Source of the DNA: Cercospora beticola
Lineage: Eukaryota; Ascomycota; Dothideomycetes; Mycosphaerellales; Mycosphaerellaceae
Length of the DNA: 64,000 nucleotides
Direction of reading: 5' to 3'
NCBI RefSeq assembly: GCF_033473495.1
Contig: NC_088940.1
Coordinates: 2,976,001 to 3,040,000, forward strand
Shown here: one piece after another, positions 12,157 to 44,855 of the stretch
Numbering within the stretch: position 1 is the first letter of the stretch
How the letters are laid out: each line of letters begins with the position of its first letter
Program-made: the position numbers and the translations under genes
Notes under the pieces: model-generated
Told to the model about the DNA's origin: nothing
The model's database searches: none
What the model saw: the letters and a program-made list of their open reading frames with translations, nothing else

Positions 12157-12486
12157 ATGCGTTCCAACATTCTCAAAGCAGCAGTCCTACTCTCCAGCGT
12201 ATTCCAACTCTCGACCGCCGCAGCACTGACCCCAGCCGGTGAGATCCTCGCGCAGGCCCTCGCAGATTACGGAGGCGTTGGAGCCTGCCATCGATCGCGC
12301 GAACGATGCCCAGATGTGGAACTCTCGCCCTCCTGTCGCCCTGAAGATCTGGCACCGTGCAGAGACTACTGCCTGAGGAAGGTTGGCAATGTGCCTGGTC
12401 TCCAGTGGGAGTTTCAGAGGAATATTAATTCTGCTCATCCGGAAGATACGTCTGGTGGGAGTCAGTGCGTTTGTTTGGTGATTTGA
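12157..12486 (+). CDS. Small secreted cysteine-rich protein, 109 aa (effector-like)
   Basis: Single exon, 109 residues. A signal peptide covers about residues 1-22 (MRSNILKAAVLLSSVFQLST, cleavage near AAA-LTP). The mature part of about 87 residues has seven cysteines, five of them in one stretch (GACHRSRERCPDVELSPSC, then PC and YC), and ends in QCVCLVI. I recognise no family. Size, secretion and Cys content fit candidate effectors or antimicrobial-type secreted proteins, but an odd cysteine number means one Cys is free or pairs between chains. A TATA box and a C/A-rich leader support real expression. Function unknown. Confidence 0.75.
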   Translation: MRSNILKAAVLLSSVFQLSTAAALTPAGEILAQALADYGGVGACHRSRERCPDVELSPSCRPEDLAPCRDYCLRKVGNVPGLQWEFQRNINSAHPEDTSGGSQCVCLVI

Positions 12487-13244: not shown

Positions 13245-14045
13245 ATGCCAGAAGGTCTCAAACTCACGTACATGCTCCCGCCAAATCTATCACTCGTCCC
13301 AGACCGCGACATAAAGCTCGGCCAGCTTCTACCGCTATCATACGACAAGCCTCGGTTGCCAGATCCCGAGTCCAATCTCACAGACTCTCCAGATTACGTT
13401 TACCCGGACCCAAGTCTCATCAAACACGAAGTCGAAGAACCCTGGGAGTATGGCGAAGGCTACAAGAAAGCAGTCTCGGGTGGTGTCTGGGCCGATATCC
13501 CAGTCCTAACAGCGATCTGTGGATCTCTAGGCTTCCAGCGATCCGGAGGCGAGGATATCACAGTGGAAGCCAAAAAGGTCGAGACGAGTTGGTTTAGTCC
13601 CAGTGCCAAGTATCTCGCCACGGCGCTGCAGCAGCCTACAGCAAGCGAGCATTTGCTGCAGGATCCGAAAGCACCGGTGTTCATGGTGACGGGCTTGAAG
13701 GTTGCTTATGATGCTTCGATAACTTTTGGAAAAGAGAAGTCGAAGGAGTTCCATGGCAGTGTCGGTGCGGATCTCACGGCTGTTGGAGCTCCGGTCAAAG
13801 TAGGGCCAGAGGCTGCTTTCAGTCGGTCTCGCGAGGTGCATTTTCGTACGCACAAGGATGGGCCTTTTGTGCTTGCGTATCAGTTGAAGCGGATCCGGCA
13901 GAAGAGAGATGGGTCGTTGGAAGTCAAGGGCTACAACTCCCGCGCTTTCCTCTTCGACGATGAGCTTCCGACTGCTGAGACCGAATTTGAAACTCTGTGG
14001 GTAGTCGATGAAGTGACATCGGAGATGGTGCTCGATGAAGAATGA
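13245..14045 (+). CDS. Gasdermin-like protein (HET-Q1/RCD-1-type), 266 aa, putative pore-forming cell-death protein
   Basis: Single exon from ATG 13245; an in-frame TGA lies just upstream. The 266 residues form one compact domain with no signal peptide. The N-terminus has the short pattern LKLTYMLPPNLSL...IKLGQLLPLSYDKP. Residues about 143-215 are long alternating, Gly-rich strands (PVFMVTGLKVAYDASITFG; GSVGADLTAVGAPVKVG) that could make a membrane-inserting hairpin, followed by a basic patch RIRQKR near 217-221. The last 35 residues are acidic (LFDDE...MVLDEE). In Podospora HET-Q1 a C-terminal tail of similar size is removed by the linked subtilisin-like protease HET-Q2 to activate the pore former. 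The neighbour 36 bp downstream on the opposite strand is such a protease, which is the strongest support. The family call rests on likeness and context, not on a search. Alternative: another fungal self-recognition protein of unknown fold. Confidence 0.6.
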   Translation: MPEGLKLTYMLPPNLSLVPDRDIKLGQLLPLSYDKPRLPDPESNLTDSPDYVYPDPSLIKHEVEEPWEYGEGYKKAVSGGVWADIPVLTAICGSLGFQRSGGEDITVEAKKVETSWFSPSAKYLATALQQPTASEHLLQDPKAPVFMVTGLKVAYDASITFGKEKSKEFHGSVGADLTAVGAPVKVGPEAAFSRSREVHFRTHKDGPFVLAYQLKRIRQKRDGSLEVKGYNSRAFLFDDELPTAETEFETLWVVDEVTSEMVLDEE

Positions 14046-14081
14046 GGCCGATGACTTGTTTGTGAGCAGTGTTCCATCTGC

Positions 14082-16722
14082 TCAATCATGACGTCTTTTA
14101 GTAGTCTTGCAATATGTAGATAATGGTCGTATCCGCTTAGTCCCTGCAGCAGCATTGAGGATGGTCTCAACACGAAGGCTTTTTGTAACATGATGATTGT
14201 GAAGTAGCTTCCAAGGCCGCAGGTAATTGTATCCGTCACGCGGGATCGCCATCTTCTGCAGAGCGTTGCTCATGCCCTTGCAGCGTCTAAGTTCGTGAAC
14301 CCGCATACTGTACTCATCTGAGGTTGATTCAGGGAATCGAAGAAGGTAGTCGGCCTGGTTGAGGAGAACATCATCCAGTAGCAACGATGCAATGCCTGCT
14401 GCAACGGGAGTGGCCACTGAAGTTCCAGATTTGGTACCACGCACGCCAGGCCTGACCAGTGCTTGAACCTCGCATCCAAGAGTAGCGAACTCTTTGTGTG
14501 AATTTTCCATCCTCACGTTGCGAGAGTATTTGTTGCCAATGCCATCGGCAGCGTGGATGCAGATCACTCGATCGTGACATGCTGGCCACTGGACTTCATC
14601 ATTGCCACCGAAATTTGAGGCTGCAGCGAACACCAGGCAAGGTCTCTCAGGTCGTCCCACTGCACCCTCTATAGCCTGATTTATGATTGGGACTTCTTGC
14701 GCGAATCCAAATGATAGTGAGATGATGTCCACGCCCTCGACATTGACCGCGTAATTGATGGCCTACAGGTAGAGCAGAAGTCAGCTGCGGGAGTAGACGA
14801 CGGGAACGAGTTGATACCTACATTGGCTATTCGGCGTGCCTGCTCCTCTGTTGGCATTACGCTGATGATATCTTGCTTGCCTCGGAAAGCCTGAGCGACA
14901 AAGGTCTTGCAATGCGGGGCGACTTGACGCAATACAGACACGGCATGAGGGCCATGATCGTCAGTCGCTGCGCATTGCTCCAAGACATTGCCCACATCAT
15001 CACAGCCTGGCTGGCCTTCAACGGCTCCGTGGTCGGTGCACCAGGTACGGTAGCTAATACATCTGTGATGGACGTTTTTGTATTAGTTCTTGTCGAAATT
15101 TGCTCCAGTATCAATGATCGCGACTTTGACCTGAGAAGACATACGTTTGTCTGATAGAACGGCCTTGTGAGCCTCGTTCCTAAGGTTAGCGAACCACTCC
15201 GCCGCATATTTAGATTCCGGGCCTTCTATAGAGGCCACTGGGGTGCAGCCTTCCCCTCTTGGCCTGATATCTTGCTTGTTTGCAGAATCTATCGAGCGTG
15301 TGTCGTCGCTCTGCGCTGCGCCCGATTGCGCATCAAGTTCTGTCTGCACGCGACCAGAGTCGCGGAGCAGTGCCAGGAACTTATCGGGCGGAAGTTCGGC
15401 GCATCGTGCCACGAGCTGTAATGACTTCACAAGAGTGGTGAATTTTTCATATATTGGTGAGTCTTGTATCATGGGTCCCGATTGCTTGAGATCCTCCTCG
15501 GCTTTGATACAGGCCATAGCGACCTCGTGAACCTGGTGCCCAATGGTAGGCTCTACCTTCTGGCACTCCGGTACCAACTTTGGCACTTCATCATATACAA
15601 TGATGCGTCCAAGCCAGATGGTCAGGATCAGTTTCCCGAATGCTGGGAGACTGGGTCGTGCTTTGTTCATGAAGTGCTCCATGAATACCTCGGGATAGAT
15701 TCGTGAGGTCGAAAAGGGTAAATATGGCTGCAACACCCCGCCAGCAGCATCGCTTGGAATGTGCAAATCAAGATCCACGCGACCATCGTGCCAGAATGCA
15801 GTGCCGCTCAGATGGAGGTATGCGTAGGCCAAGAGCAGCACAACTGCCAAACGATGTTTGACGTCTGGAAGGAAGCTGTCACCTGGCTCAGTCAGCCAGT
15901 CAGCCAAAGGCGTCAGCGTTATGCTGCCGCTTCTTCTGTGATTCGTTTCTGGGATAACTTGCAGGAACCCTGCTTTCCCAGGCCGCAAGTAGATTTCTTC
16001 GAATCCGTCGGCTAGGATCTCACACAGAACGGCGTGTTGCCTTTCTTCCGCGCTGCTGGTCGGCCACTGAAGTCTGATTCGTGCAGCTCTCCATTGACGT
16101 ATCGACTTCTCTCGACTGTCTGAAGGTCTCTGCCCCACTTGTGAATGAGACCATGGCATCATGTTGAGACGTGCAATGCGAGCATCTCAGTTGAAGACTG
16201 ATCAGCTTCTCAAGTTTGCGTACACTCTCATACGTGCTGCCAATGGTCTGCAGCAATTTCTCCCCTTTCACGAGGTCTATGATCGAAGCTGGAAGAAATT
16301 CTGGGTCCAGAGCAACGGCACATGTTTCCAGATCGAATTCGAGTCGCTCGCGAATGTCGGTTCCGGGGCAGAACAGAAATGGCTTGATGGTCGTGTGGAA
16401 GCTGTGTTCCGTGTTCGCAATCACATCAGTGCCTTCCCACTCTACGGCATGCTTGATGCTGTGCAGATTTGGCCAGAGCTGGAGCGTGCCCGGGCTGATA
16501 TCGGTTCGAAGGAGCGCCTCGAGGGTCATCAAAAGCTGATGAAATGACGCGGAACTGCGCGTAAATTGAAGCATGGAAAGGTTCGTCGTCCAGCTGGGAG
16601 TCCCGGTTCACGGCGGCCTGGGCCGCCTTGCCGTCGCCCGTCTTCGCGACGAGGAGCTCAGCGACGCAAAGAAACGCCGGTAATATTCCCCTCAAAAGGC
16701 TGATATCAGATTCCGCATCCAT
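14082..16722 (-). pseudogene. Subtilisin-like (S8) serine protease with DUF7580-like N-terminal region, HET-Q2-type partner; interrupted reading frame
   Basis: Reading leftward: an N-terminal helical part (LLRGILPAFLCVAELLVAK; HSIKHAVEWEGTDVIANTE), then a region resembling DUF7580 (CEILADGFEEIYLRPGKAGF; HRLAVVLLLAYAYLHLSGTA), then a peptidase S8 domain. The Asp box is VAIIDTG, the His box DDHGPHAVSVL, the oxyanion Asn box FAAASNFGG and the Ser box SGTSVATPVAAG. Introns: about 16.1-16.2 kb (borders uncertain) and 14821-14763. Two problems: an in-frame TAA at 15083-15085, nine codons after the catalytic Asp, with the same frame continuing to the His box and no usable donor; and a frame change near 16525-16550, which could be a short indel or a weak 76-nt intron (16611-16536). 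All four catalytic positions survive, so inactivation looks recent. It converges on the gasdermin-like gene. A sequencing error remains possible. Confidence 0.65.
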
Positions 16723-19900: not shown

Positions 19901-21491
19901 GTAACGATTTTCGTACTGCGGCTAGACGGAGGGGAATGCTGCCCTGCATTTTTCACATTGGTGAGCCACTCAAATACCCTGATCATACTGGGACTTATGA
20001 GTTCACGTCGCAACTGCTGTAAGTACTGCGATCCAAAGACAAACCGCTATCACTAATCTGTACAGGCGGCACTTGGCGTCAGTGCACGGATTTCATGCTT
20101 GTCAGAAGTGTTTCACATTGCGTGCAACGGCTTCACAGTTGCACGACCATATCTGCAAGAAAAATTGTGCAAACGCAAGCTGCAGGAGGGCTGTTCTCTT
20201 GGGGGTGGATCCGCCGATGGTTTGCCAATGCATTACGACTCAGGAGGAACAGTGGCAAGAGCTCTACAAATTGCAGTACAATTCGTTGGACCAAGCTGCG
20301 ACGAGTAGGACTCCGGAGGAACAATGGCAAGAGCTCTACAAATTGCAGTTCAATTCGTTGGACAAAGCTGCGACGAGTAGGAATGCCGCTCCATCCACCA
20401 TTGGGGGCGATGAGGATACCTTACATGACATTGATCGTGCTGGCGAACTCAAAGTATCGAAGGATGGACAATTACGTGGCGGTCGTGAGTATCAGTGCAG
20501 AACCTTTACGCTCCCAGGCCGTGGCACTACGATTTACATGTTAGCTACTGAATGTGCTCGTGTACTGGGCTACCGCGACTCTGACATTCTGTTCAACGAA
20601 AATCAGACTTTGGGCAAGATTATCATAGGCCAAGCGGAGAAGGATGACCTACTTGGTCGAAACATCTTGCCGCGCTTTGATAGAGCCCGACAAGTTGCCG
20701 TCGTTACAGCTCGATCAATGTTCAGGCAATTCGGAAGTCGTGTGATTGAGGACGGGCAGCCCGGACGCGACGATTATTGGGAAGCAGATGCTCAACACCA
20801 AGTTTTTGCAGGGTTCGGTCTCCCCAGCCCCGGGTTTCTCAATGAGTTCCAAAGCCATCCAGGCATCAGAGATCTCGTTGGAAACAATCCTCCCGACCGC
20901 TACGAGGCCGTATCTCCCCTTCTGCTGCCCATTGACAGCACAAGTGCTAATACTTCGCGAGATCCGCAACAGTCACACCAGCCACGCAAGGGGCGGAAGA
21001 GGCCCGCGACATGCTGCTTGCCTTGCAGTGAACTCAATATACGCTGCGACCTAGGCGTGGAAGGTTGCGTGCAATGCGCGAGGGCAGGTATACCGTGCCG
21101 AATGCGCAGCGCGAATGCTGAGTCTTCGCGAGATCCGAACGAGCTACGTGACCCACCAGAGGCACAACAAGGCCGTGCGGAAAGCTGTCTGGCCTGTAGA
21201 GAACGGAAATTACGCTGCGATCCAGGAGACGATGGCTGTCTGCAATGCGCGGAGCGAGGGACACCATGCCGGATGCTAAGCCGCCGCAGAGTAAAGCCAT
21301 CTGGGCCAACATCTCAGTACCCAATGCCACTGGAGGAGCACGAAATCACTCAATCGAAAGCTCTAGAGACTGTACGACCTGAAGATACCATGGACGTGGA
21401 TACGGATGAAGAGGGTGGCCAAGTTGTTCACATGGCACGGGTTCAACCAGGTGTACCTTTGAACACAAGTCCCGTTTTGAACAAATTTTGA
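16924..21491 (+). CDS. Giant chimeric regulator: C2H2 fingers + DUF domain + Rsc7/Swp82-like segment + two Zn2Cys6 clusters
   Basis: Exon ends 17864, 17919-20018 and 20066-21491 are joined by introns of 54 and 47 nt with good GTGAGC/GTAAGT, CTAAT and CAG signals. Phases match across both, giving about 1,480 residues. Exon 1 lacks an early ATG; it probably starts after an acceptor at 16922-16923, with a first exon near 16760. Visible parts in order: helical N-terminus (HRLRNNSAVRSSIAQLLEA); CPLC...H finger spanning the first splice; CQNC...H finger; a classical C2H2 pair (CPYCEFEFRRHDDLKSHLLTH, linker QEKPY, CQTCQARFRRLSDLKRH); a domain like that in Medusa-type regulators (GAWKVVGRTVKDLSVYYWVD); a finger-like CQKCF...HDHIC; an Rsc7/Swp82-like stretch (FTLPGRGTTIYMLATECARV, VVTARSMFRQFGSRVI); then CLPC...C and CLAC...C zinc clusters. 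Probably a nuclear DNA-binding or chromatin-linked regulator. Confidence 0.75.
20244..20381 (+). repeat. 72-nt tandem duplication inside exon 3 of the chimeric regulator
   Basis: Two copies, the second shortened to about 66 nt, encode EEQWQELYKLQ(Y/F)NSLD(Q/K)AATSR. The copies differ at only a few bases, so the duplication is young and kept in frame. Confidence 0.85.
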
Positions 21492-29724: not shown

Positions 29725-30488
<764 letters not shown>

Positions 30489-42953: not shown

Positions 42954-44855
42954 CTATCTAACGCTCATCCATTCGGCGACAAAATAGTCCTTAAACTCCC
43001 CTTGCATAAGTCCGAAAACATAGCAAACCCCTATCAGCACGTATTCTCGCTTCCGCCCAGTTGAGCGCATCACAAAGGGCACAGATCCTCCACAGAGAAC
43101 AACGATTCGATCTCCGGACTTCATATTCGGAGGTCCAATCCCAGCAAGTCCACCTCTTGTCATGAAGAATTTGCGGCCATACATGGTCTGCTCAAATCTG
43201 GAATACCAGCGACCGGCGCGATTTTTCTCATCATGTTGCTGACCTTCTGGTACCGCAAGTCGTTGAGTCGGATACTGCTTTGAGTACCTCAGGAATGCGG
43301 CAAAGTCGTCCACGACAGTACGATCTCTTGAGGTGTTGTGACCGGCGACAAGAACAAGACCCAGCTCGTTGATCCAATCCTTCCCTGGCCTTCTTTTTCG
43401 TATCATTGAGCCAACCTGGCCCATAAGCTTAGCATGGTCGCCGTTCGTCCACGATTTTGCTGAAGAGAAAGTTGGTGAGTATTCTTCGATGCCATCGATA
43501 TCAGCACCTCTCGCCTTTAGCGTGTCCGGTTCGTCAAACATAACATAACAGGTGGCGTTGCCGTCCGCGCGGAAGCCATTTCCCAGCTTGCAAATTGGAT
43601 CAGCGTCACGTCCAGAGAGTCCGGCGTCAAAGAGCAGGGTCCATGAAGGGTAGCCAGCCGGGACCTTGGAGGGCTCTACAAACTGCAGAGCTTGCAGGTT
43701 ACGGCTGTCCTCGACACAAGCCCGTGTTGCGTCGCGAAACACCTCCGGAAGCGGCTTGGTATACTTCGGCCTTAAGAGCAGGCCACGAAGACGAAGATGC
43801 GGTTGCTGGTCCTTGAACAAGCCCATCAATGCATATACATGGTCTCTTGCTTCGGTTGCTTCAAAGTTCTGCGTCAAAACATACGCCATGAATAGATCTG
43901 TATCAGGGTTGTTCCTTCGATCCAAGATATACCACATCGACCGCGCCGCCCATAGGCCTCGTTGTTTCCTCATCGGTGGCGGCAGCATAAGACCGTTGTA
44001 GAGGAGCCAGGCAGCTGCATCGAGGATATCCGACAGCGGAAACTTGCATGGTCCAAAATGACAGGTACTTTGTTGCGAGAGTGCGGCCTCCTGGGCAACC
44101 CACAGTCGTCGGAACCACTCGCTCTGGAAAAGCAACTGCAGGGACTTTAAATCGATAGAAGCATCCAACAGTCGACCATTCTGCGTTTCAGTTCCAGCAG
44201 GATTATTCATCAGCGATCTGAATTTTCCTCCAGTGGCTCTTTTGATATTCGTCTTCACTGCCTGGAGCGAGTTCAAAATGGATCTTGCCTCTGTGGGCGT
44301 GTACTTGTACTTGTCGGGAGGCGTTAGCCAGATGAGGTTGTGATCGCCTCGCTGGTAAATATCACACATGAACGCGACCTGGTCCCCTTTTTCGGCTGTG
44401 TTGCATTGGTTGATGGATATTGCATCTATCCATAGCAGGCGTTCTTGCGTTTGGGATCGCATGCGCCGAAGCACCCTTTCTGCACTGCCTGGAACCAGCT
44501 CTCTAATCCCATCGATCTGCATCCATCCTTCGCCTGGATCCTTGCCCCAACAGTACGAGATCGTTTCGTAGGCGGGGATCTTTCTTGATTGGAGACATAT
44601 GACCTGAGTTGTGCATTGCAATGGATCGTCTTCGTTTTTTGCCGGGAAAAGCCTAAGTAATCTGATTTCTTTCTTGTCAGAGTCTATGTTGCGATATGTT
44701 CGGGGAAATTCCAGCTTCCGCTGCAGTCTTGCTGGAGGCTTGTTGTAAGAATCCGTCCCTGAGTGCTTCGCAGATAGGGCCTGTTGTTTAGTTTTATCGA
44801 TGTTTTGGGGGGCGACCGGCGCCTTCGATCTTTTGAAGCTGGAAAAGAGTGGCAT
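42954..44855 (-). CDS. HET-domain (heterokaryon incompatibility) protein, 633 aa
   Basis: Single exon from ATG 44855. The HET domain begins about residue 96 and shows the family blocks YETISYCWG (96-104), LLWIDAISINQ (140-150) and MCDIYQRGDHNLIWL (163-177). The remaining 400 residues are mixed alpha/beta with WILDRRNNPDTD-type and DHVYALMGLFKD phrases common to large HET proteins. The C-terminus contains GDRIVVLCGGSVPFVMR and YVLIGVCYVFGLMQGEF. HET domains act in allorecognition and programmed cell death after hyphal fusion and resemble TIR domains in fold; recent work ties such folds to NAD cleavage. I see no NACHT or repeat domain attached. Family members are numerous, so this particular protein's partner is unknown. 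Confidence 0.93.
   Translation of the reverse strand: MPLFSSFKRSKAPVAPQNIDKTKQQALSAKHSGTDSYNKPPARLQRKLEFPRTYRNIDSDKKEIRLLRLFPAKNEDDPLQCTTQVICLQSRKIPAYETISYCWGKDPGEGWMQIDGIRELVPGSAERVLRRMRSQTQERLLWIDAISINQCNTAEKGDQVAFMCDIYQRGDHNLIWLTPPDKYKYTPTEARSILNSLQAVKTNIKRATGGKFRSLMNNPAGTETQNGRLLDASIDLKSLQLLFQSEWFRRLWVAQEAALSQQSTCHFGPCKFPLSDILDAAAWLLYNGLMLPPPMRKQRGLWAARSMWYILDRRNNPDTDLFMAYVLTQNFEATEARDHVYALMGLFKDQQPHLRLRGLLLRPKYTKPLPEVFRDATRACVEDSRNLQALQFVEPSKVPAGYPSWTLLFDAGLSGRDADPICKLGNGFRADGNATCYVMFDEPDTLKARGADIDGIEEYSPTFSSAKSWTNGDHAKLMGQVGSMIRKRRPGKDWINELGLVLVAGHNTSRDRTVVDDFAAFLRYSKQYPTQRLAVPEGQQHDEKNRAGRWYSRFEQTMYGRKFFMTRGGLAGIGPPNMKSGDRIVVLCGGSVPFVMRSTGRKREYVLIGVCYVFGLMQGEFKDYFVAEWMSVR

What the first reader, a model, noticed from the sequence alone, without database searches (positions are those of the whole stretch)
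13245..16722. Gasdermin-like gene facing a linked subtilisin-like protease: a HET-Q1/HET-Q2-type cell-death pair
Seen: a 266-residue Gly-rich, strand-rich protein with an acidic 35-residue tail, and 36 bp away on the other strand an S8 protease with a DUF7580-like front part. Known: in Podospora, HET-Q1 (gasdermin-like) is clipped near its C-terminus by HET-Q2, and fungal gasdermin-like genes are commonly clustered with protease genes. Inferred: this is such a pair, with the acidic tail as the inhibitory part removed by cleavage. The DUF7580-like sensor-side domain on the protease could be the trigger module.
Basis: partly seen in the sequence, partly recalled or inferred. Interest (0 to 1): 0.9.

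Follow-up and report, generated by a model that had tools for sequence, protein, structure and literature searches.

The report
Fungal gasdermin beside an interrupted protease
This stretch of what looks like a fungal genome holds a gene of the pore-forming gasdermin family next to a gene for the kind of protease that usually switches such proteins on, a pairing already known in fungi, but in this copy the protease gene appears to be broken by a stop codon.

Summary
The pair is real and of a known kind. The 266-aa gene (13245-14045 +) is a fungal gasdermin (fGSDM): a profile of it and its one detected paralogue matches four PDB sequences, all RCD-1 (best E 3.3e-6), and a profile of RCD-1 pieces finds it again (E 1.5e-5; next unrelated 1.2). 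The gene 36 bp away on the other strand has a subtilase (S8) domain and a weakly DUF7580-like front. The paralogue also lies beside an S8 gene, with a clear DUF7580 front (E 2.4e-11): 2 of 2 fGSDMs found.

Two corrections. The protease frame has an in-frame TAA (15085-15083) between the catalytic Asp and His motifs. Of 16 GT-AG introns that remove it in frame, 0 keep the Asp motif; two GC-AG introns would, but cut 31 or 42 residues. And in Podospora het-Q1 and het-Q2 are idiomorphs; a cis pair is the general protease-fGSDM cluster reported for about 80% of fGSDMs. The protein is not Gly-rich, and the acidic tail's role is untested.

Verdict: new member of a known kind; the interrupted sensor is the unusual point.

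The parts
13245..14045 (+). Fungal gasdermin-like gene (fGSDM), 266 aa, single exon, stop included
   Evidence: profile with its paralogue has four PDB hits, all RCD-1 chains; RCD-1-only profile recovers it at E 1.5e-5; one paralogue found in the genome.
13587..13904 (+). Stretch aligned to RCD-1 (residues 115-220), with the motif P-V-F-M-V-T-G-L-K-V-A
   Evidence: Alignment; a degenerate DNA pattern of the motif occurs 2 times in the 36-Mb genome, at the two fGSDM genes, control 0.
13956..14042 (+). Acidic C-terminal tail (residues 238-266, net charge -12), candidate inhibitory part
   Evidence: charge; the role is inferred from HET-Q1, which loses its last 40 residues (PMC10989679, passages).
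14082..16722 (-). Protease gene, as modelled: weakly DUF7580-like front and S8 subtilase domain, reading frame interrupted
   Evidence: Model: exons 16722-16612, 16535-16139, 16086-14822, 14762-14082; start and introns 1 and 2 are tentative; intron 3 (14821-14763) is canonical and sits at the same place and phase as in the C9 protease (read by eye).
15083..15085 (-). In-frame TAA stop between the catalytic Asp motif (DTG, starts 15112) and the His motif (DDHGPH, starts 14962)
   Evidence: 0 of 16 in-frame GT-AG introns of 40-250 nt that remove it keep DTG; two GC-AG introns (93 and 126 nt) would keep DTG.
15476..16099 (-). Weakly DUF7580-like (kinase-like) part of the protease gene
   Evidence: PF24476 E 0.069 over residues 22-193 of 15083-16162, under cut-off; profile-profile E 3.3e-4, probability 38%.
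14082..14762 (-). Last exon: S8 core with AAASNFGG and the catalytic-Ser motif GTSVATP
   Evidence: 39% identity over 62 residues to the C9 protease.
14046..14081 (.). 36-bp gap between the two convergent stop codons

Best explanation
This is a two-gene gasdermin/protease cell-death cluster of the known kind (fGSDM beside a HET-Q2-like protease, Q2L) in what I take to be a filamentous fungus. In the working form of such a cluster, the protease gene encodes an intracellular sensor: here a kinase-like DUF7580-type front fused to a subtilase. When the sensor is triggered, its subtilase clips the short acidic tail off the neighbouring gasdermin, which then forms pores in the plasma membrane and kills the cell. 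In this assembly the sensor's frame is interrupted between the catalytic Asp and His motifs. The gasdermin at this locus is therefore probably held without its own working cis protease, while a second, diverged pair on another contig shows no such lesion in the exon stretches read. Shown: relatedness to RCD-1, the S8 domain, linkage at two loci, the stop codon in the assembly. Inferred: cleavage of the tail, pore formation, the trigger role of the front, loss of function.
For: fGSDM membership: the paralogue alone has only RCD-1-2 (E 0.15) and RCD-1-1 (E 1.1) as PDB hits up to E 10; the two-sequence profile has four hits, all RCD-1 (3.3e-6, 6e-5, 8e-4, 0.21); a profile of RCD-1 pieces alone finds the window protein at E 1.5e-5 among 2,205 sequences, where a cut piece of the same gene (by its coordinates) has 6.4e-6 and the next has 1.2. 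Linkage: S8 domain 36 bp away; the paralogue has an S8 gene whose stop lies 226 bp upstream. The two proteases: S8 cores 39% identical over 62 residues, a phase-0 intron at the same place, DUF7580 in the C9 one at E 2.4e-11. DUF7580 looks kinase-related: one of five members scanned also matches Pkinase at E 9.9e-5, under that family's cut-off; a review says that such proteases can be fused to predicted kinase-like domains (PMC12881547, passages). Both fGSDMs have acidic tails (-12 in 29 and -14 in 56 residues). Interruption.
Against: The window protein alone has no RCD-1 hit in the PDB (one unrelated hit at E 0.79) and no Pfam, NCBIfam or PADLOC family; the paralogue has only an under-cut-off Pfam match to an unrelated family at 0.027; animal gasdermin PF04598 has no hit in the genome. 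No usable structure model. The DUF7580 match in the window is under the cut-off and comes and goes with the stretch given, its profile-profile probability is 38%, and the fronts of the two proteases show no BLAST similarity. The two linked pairs could descend from one duplicated pair and so count as one event. Homologues in other fungi could not be searched.
Confidence: 0.8

Rival explanations
1. The protease is intact in nature and the TAA is an assembly or sequencing error, so the locus is a fully working protease-fGSDM pair.
For: Apart from the TAA the frame is open on both sides and carries the expected motifs DTG, DDHGPH, AAASN and GTSVATP, so there is little sign of further decay; one assembly only was available.
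Against: The genome is in 10 contigs, of which the 8 whose length I saw are 2.5-5.5 Mb, which suggests a good assembly; no read data could be checked. This assembly reads TAA.
Confidence: 0.3
2. The stop is removed by splicing. Either a GC-AG intron leaves a shortened but catalytically complete protease, or a GT-AG intron leaves a protein without the catalytic Asp, a pseudoprotease that binds or guards the gasdermin.
For: Two GC-AG introns (93 and 126 nt, both with the 5' site GCAAAT) keep DTG and the frame into the His motif. 16 GT-AG introns of 40-250 nt would remove the stop and keep the frame. A consensus-like 82-nt intron (GTATGT...CTAAT...CACAG, 15144-15063) covers the Asp motif and the stop.
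Against: The GC-AG introns would delete 31 or 42 residues between the Asp and His motifs, where the C9 protease is open and has no intron, and GCAAAT departs from the usual GCAAGT site (recalled). 0 of the 16 GT-AG introns keep DTG. The 82-nt consensus-like intron is not one of the 16: it shifts the frame away from the His motif. VKVAIIDTG is a textbook subtilase motif (recalled), unlikely to stay inside an intron. I raised this rival from 0.08 to 0.1 on re-reading.
Confidence: 0.1
3. The two genes are neighbours by chance; the 266-aa protein is a gasdermin, but the protease is an unrelated degraded gene.
For: The protease frame is interrupted and its front finds no relative in the genome besides itself at E up to 1.
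Against: The second fGSDM also has an S8 neighbour, with a DUF7580 front. With 22 S8 rows (19 places after I joined neighbouring rows) in 36 Mb, I estimate by hand, without a call, that two random genes would both lie within about 2 kb of an S8 gene in roughly 1 of 100,000 cases. Reviews report such clusters for about 80% of fGSDMs (PMC10197012, section 15).
Confidence: 0.05

Closest known systems
Q2L-fGSDM two-gene clusters (Clave et al. 2022, known here only through reviews PMC10197012, PMC10989679, PMC12881547)
   Same: Gasdermin gene directly beside an S8 protease gene; multidomain protease; one review mentions predicted kinase-like domains on such proteases.
   Different: The protease frame carries a stop between the Asp and His motifs; the front domain is only weakly DUF7580-like.
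HET-Q1 / HET-Q2 of Podospora anserina
   Same: fGSDM of similar length (278 aa against 266) with a C-terminal tail; S8 protease partner.
   Different: There the two genes are idiomorphs, alternatives at one locus, not neighbours in one genome; HET-Q2 is 388 aa, while the modelled gene here has 503 codons before its stop. HET-Q1 loses 40 residues after F238; here 29 residues follow F237, and cleavage is untested.
RCD-1-1 / RCD-1-2 of Neurospora crassa
   Same: Same protein family by profile (E 6e-5 and 3.3e-6), aligned over residues 115-220.
   Different: RCD-1 is activated by meeting its other allelic variant, not by cleavage (PMC12881547, passages); the window protein extends 46 residues past the aligned stretch and has a protease neighbour.
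The second pair in this genome (about C9:1828426-1831603)
   Same: S8 + DUF7580 gene beside an fGSDM with an acidic tail.
   Different: Tandem rather than convergent; motifs DTG, GHGTH and GTSFAAP present and no stop seen in the exon stretches read (the TAG counted is the end of an intron); a HET-domain gene follows 0.8 kb downstream on the other strand (E 9.4e-25).

Membership tests
Fungal gasdermins (fGSDM) | Sequence homology to characterised fGSDMs (RCD-1, HET-Q1) | tested here: met
   (RCD-1); not met by single-sequence phmmer of the window protein. HET-Q1 was not compared.
Fungal gasdermins (fGSDM) | Gasdermin N-domain fold | tested here: inconclusive
   Single-sequence AlphaFold2 model, pLDDT 33.4, unusable.
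Fungal gasdermins (fGSDM) | Membrane pore formation and cell killing | not testable with these tools
   Needs expression, for example in laboratory yeast.
Q2L-fGSDM cluster | Protease gene adjacent or within 10 kb | tested here: met
   36 bp; the paralogue 226 bp.
Q2L-fGSDM cluster | Catalytically complete S8 or CHAT protease | tested here: not met
   In-frame TAA between Asp and His motifs; no GT-AG intron tested spares DTG, two GC-AG introns would. No CHAT hit in the genome at E up to 1. This lowers 'working cluster', not 'cluster of this kind'.
HET-Q1/HET-Q2 incompatibility system | The two genes are idiomorphs (alternatives at one locus) | not tested
   One genome only; here both genes lie in cis, which is not that arrangement.
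HET-Q1/HET-Q2 incompatibility system | C-terminal cleavage of the gasdermin by the protease | not testable with these tools
   The acidic tail is present; cleavage was not tested.
DUF7580 (PF24476) | Profile score over the curated cut-off | tested here: not met
   13.2 bits against 27 in the window; met by the C9 protease, 44.3 bits.
Peptidase S8 (PF00082) | Profile score over cut-off, Asp/His/Ser motifs | tested here: met
   29.5 bits against 21.8 on 14082-14732; Asp and His motifs are in one frame but separated by a stop, the Ser motif follows in the last exon.

The most novel reading that the evidence does not exclude
The locus is caught in the act of becoming an allorecognition locus: the gasdermin is kept, full-length and tail-bearing, while its cis protease has lost its catalytic frame. 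This strain would then be in a HET-Q1-like state, killed on fusion with strains that carry a working protease allele. That would be a convergent, cis-degenerate origin of a het-Q-type system, as the 'pseudogenization' model in PMC10197012 (figure-legend passage) would allow.
Probability: 0.12. Interest if true: 0.6.

Novelty: new member of a known kind. Interest (0 to 1): 0.32.

Why it matters
Gasdermin/protease pairs link fungal self-killing to animal pyroptosis and bacterial anti-phage defence. This genome offers two diverged pairs. In one the sensor's frame is interrupted, and in the other no stop was seen in the exon stretches read. That makes it possible to ask, by population sequencing, whether broken sensors mark loci that turn into incompatibility systems. 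The DUF7580 front of the second pair, and the weaker likeness in the first, point to a kinase-like domain as the input side, whose signal is unknown.

Tried and rejected
A scan of the bacterial and archaeal genome collection with two peptide patterns from A1 gave 67 pattern matches, none a relative by tblastn.

Structure: the single-sequence model of the 266-aa protein was useless, so no fold search was run. The paralogue was not handed to structure prediction, because loci from the genome search and the fetch from genomes are not among the sources that tool lists.

More fGSDMs: protein searches of the own genome, the motif pattern and the RCD-1-based profiles over the six-frame ORFs of 50 held records (these include the 10-kb surroundings of 7 further S8 places) gave no third gene. 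That last test covered the window and the loci then held, not the whole genome; ORFs of 80 aa or more were used, and those that hold residues 101-130 of either fGSDM were kept out. The ORFs of L038-L043 were read by eye; those of L044-L046 were not.

'HET-Q1/HET-Q2-type' in the strict sense was rejected because those genes are idiomorphs. 'Gly-rich' was rejected (7.1%). RIP-like decay as the cause of the interruption: the TpA/ApT index of the protease gene (0.48) is not raised against the window (0.55).
Full report
What is there. The ORF at 13245-14045 (+) codes for 266 aa. On the minus strand, ending 36 bp away, lies a multi-exon gene that I model from about 16722 to 14082: exons 16722-16612, 16535-16139, 16086-14822 and 14762-14082. 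The start and the first two introns are tentative (for the second, 13 GT-AG choices join the frames). The third, GTAGGT...CTGTAG, is canonical, and its place and phase match an intron in the C9 protease (my reading).

Is the 266-aa protein a gasdermin? By itself it has no Pfam, NCBIfam or PADLOC match and one unrelated PDB hit at E 0.79. The genome, 36.07 Mb in 10 contigs, holds one detectable paralogue (P0002, 276 aa, C9:1830773-1831600, 28% identity). That paralogue alone has two PDB hits up to E 10 among 177,635 sequences: RCD-1-2 (0.15) and RCD-1-1 (1.1). A profile of both proteins has four hits, all RCD-1, the best at 3.3e-6. As a check I built a profile from the printed RCD-1 pieces only and searched 2,205 sequences: the window protein, 1,102 ORF decoys and their reversals. 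The window protein scored E 1.5e-5; a cut piece of the same gene, left among the decoys, scored 6.4e-6; the next was 1.2. One caution: the RCD-1 pieces were those that had aligned to a profile holding the window protein, so this check is not fully independent; one search is, but its E-values alone are not significant. A 29-base degenerate pattern of the motif [VIM]-x-x-[VIM]-T-G-x-x-[VIM]-A matches 2 places in the genome, the two genes, and its reversed control matches 0. I conclude that both are fungal gasdermins. The fold itself was not shown: the single-sequence model had pLDDT 33.4.

Is the neighbour a gasdermin-activating protease? Its last exon scores 29.5 bits on PF00082 (cut-off 21.8) and its best PDB match is an intracellular serine protease (3.6e-8). 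The front is weakly DUF7580-like. The paralogous fGSDM on C9 has an S8 gene upstream: PF00082 1.8e-5 and 9.1e-11 on two ORFs, DUF7580 2.4e-11 on the front, 226 bp between stop and start. A HET-domain gene (9.4e-25) faces it downstream. PF00082 gave 22 rows in the genome, 19 places after I joined rows of one gene. PF24476 gave 8 rows, of which one, the C9 gene, lies within 10 kb of an S8 row; the window's own front is not among the 8. So both fGSDM genes found have an S8 neighbour, one with a clear and one with a weak DUF7580-type front. If the pairs go back to one duplicated pair this counts as one event; but the fronts share no BLAST similarity and the gene order differs (convergent in the window, tandem on C9).

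The interruption. In the frame that carries the Asp motif VKVAIIDTG (DTG starts 15112) and the His motif DDHGPH (starts 14962), a TAA stands at 15085-15083. No GT-AG intron that starts after DTG removes it in frame; two GC-AG introns do (93 and 126 nt, 5' site GCAAAT), at the cost of 31 or 42 residues between the two motifs. Of 16 GT-AG introns of 40-250 nt that start anywhere from 15238 on, remove the stop and keep the frame into the His motif, 0 keep DTG. So from this assembly one reads a truncated front, a protein without its catalytic Asp, or, through an unusual GC-AG intron, a shortened protease. The rest of the frame looks healthy, and the dinucleotide index gives no sign of repeat-induced mutation. 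I cannot tell an assembly error from a real lesion; reads would decide.

Mechanism. From the literature I saw (reviews PMC12881547: passages and section 21; PMC10197012: passages and section 15; PMC10989679: passages; the primary paper of Clave et al. 2022 is not held): about 1,900 fGSDMs in 400 genomes; about 80% cluster with protease genes, mostly S8; protease domains can be fused to predicted kinase-like domains; HET-Q1 (278 aa) loses 40 residues after F238 to HET-Q2. By analogy the DUF7580-type front would sense, the subtilase would clip, and the gasdermin would open pores. DUF7580 looks kinase-related: one of five members scanned matches Pkinase at 9.9e-5, under that family's cut-off. The acidic tails of both fGSDMs (-12 in 29, -14 in 56) fit an inhibitory role, and residues F235/F237 lie near the number of HET-Q1's F238; this is inference, no alignment with HET-Q1 was made. 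'DUF7580' by name is in 0 papers of the held library.

HET-Q or not. het-Q1 and het-Q2 are idiomorphs (PMC12881547, passages). The arrangement here, both genes in cis, is the general cluster. The interrupted protease, however, leaves this strain with a gasdermin whose cis protease may be dead, which resembles the state of a HET-Q1-type strain. PMC10197012 (figure-legend passage) proposes that incompatibility systems can arise by pseudogenization. This is the boldest reading that the data allow; it needs population data.

Verdict. A real, correctly recognised gasdermin/protease pair; a new member of a known kind; the interruption is the one unusual feature.

Noticed in passing
L003:6414-8906 (-), G000:C9: A HET-domain gene (PF06985, E 9.4e-25) lies 0.8 kb downstream of the second fGSDM, a three-gene neighbourhood of cell-death genes.
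   Followed up: partly
window 42957-44855 (-): A HET-domain gene (PF06985, E 1.8e-24) about 26 kb from the protease gene.
   Followed up: no
window 12157-12486 (+): ORF of 109 aa with a signal-peptide-like start and several cysteines, a small secreted protein by eye, 0.76 kb upstream of the fGSDM; no Pfam match.
   Followed up: no
window 29823-30478: A 228-bp tandem repeat, 2.9 copies, 83% matches, that reads like a polyubiquitin gene (by eye).
   Followed up: no
window 13245 = G000:C6:2989245: The pair lies about 98 kb from the end of a 3.09-Mb contig.
   Followed up: no
L038:4740-5453 (G000:C9:41239-41952): A DUF7580 stretch, 28% identical to that of the C9 protease, with no S8 row within 30 kb.
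   Followed up: partly
L032:1501-2073 (-), G000:C5: A DUF7580 stretch that also matches Pkinase (E 9.9e-5, under cut-off), which suggests that DUF7580 is a degenerate kinase domain.
   Followed up: partly
window 20073-21491 (+): Rsc7/Swp82 chromatin-remodelling subunit in one ORF with a Zn2-Cys6 cluster.
   Followed up: no
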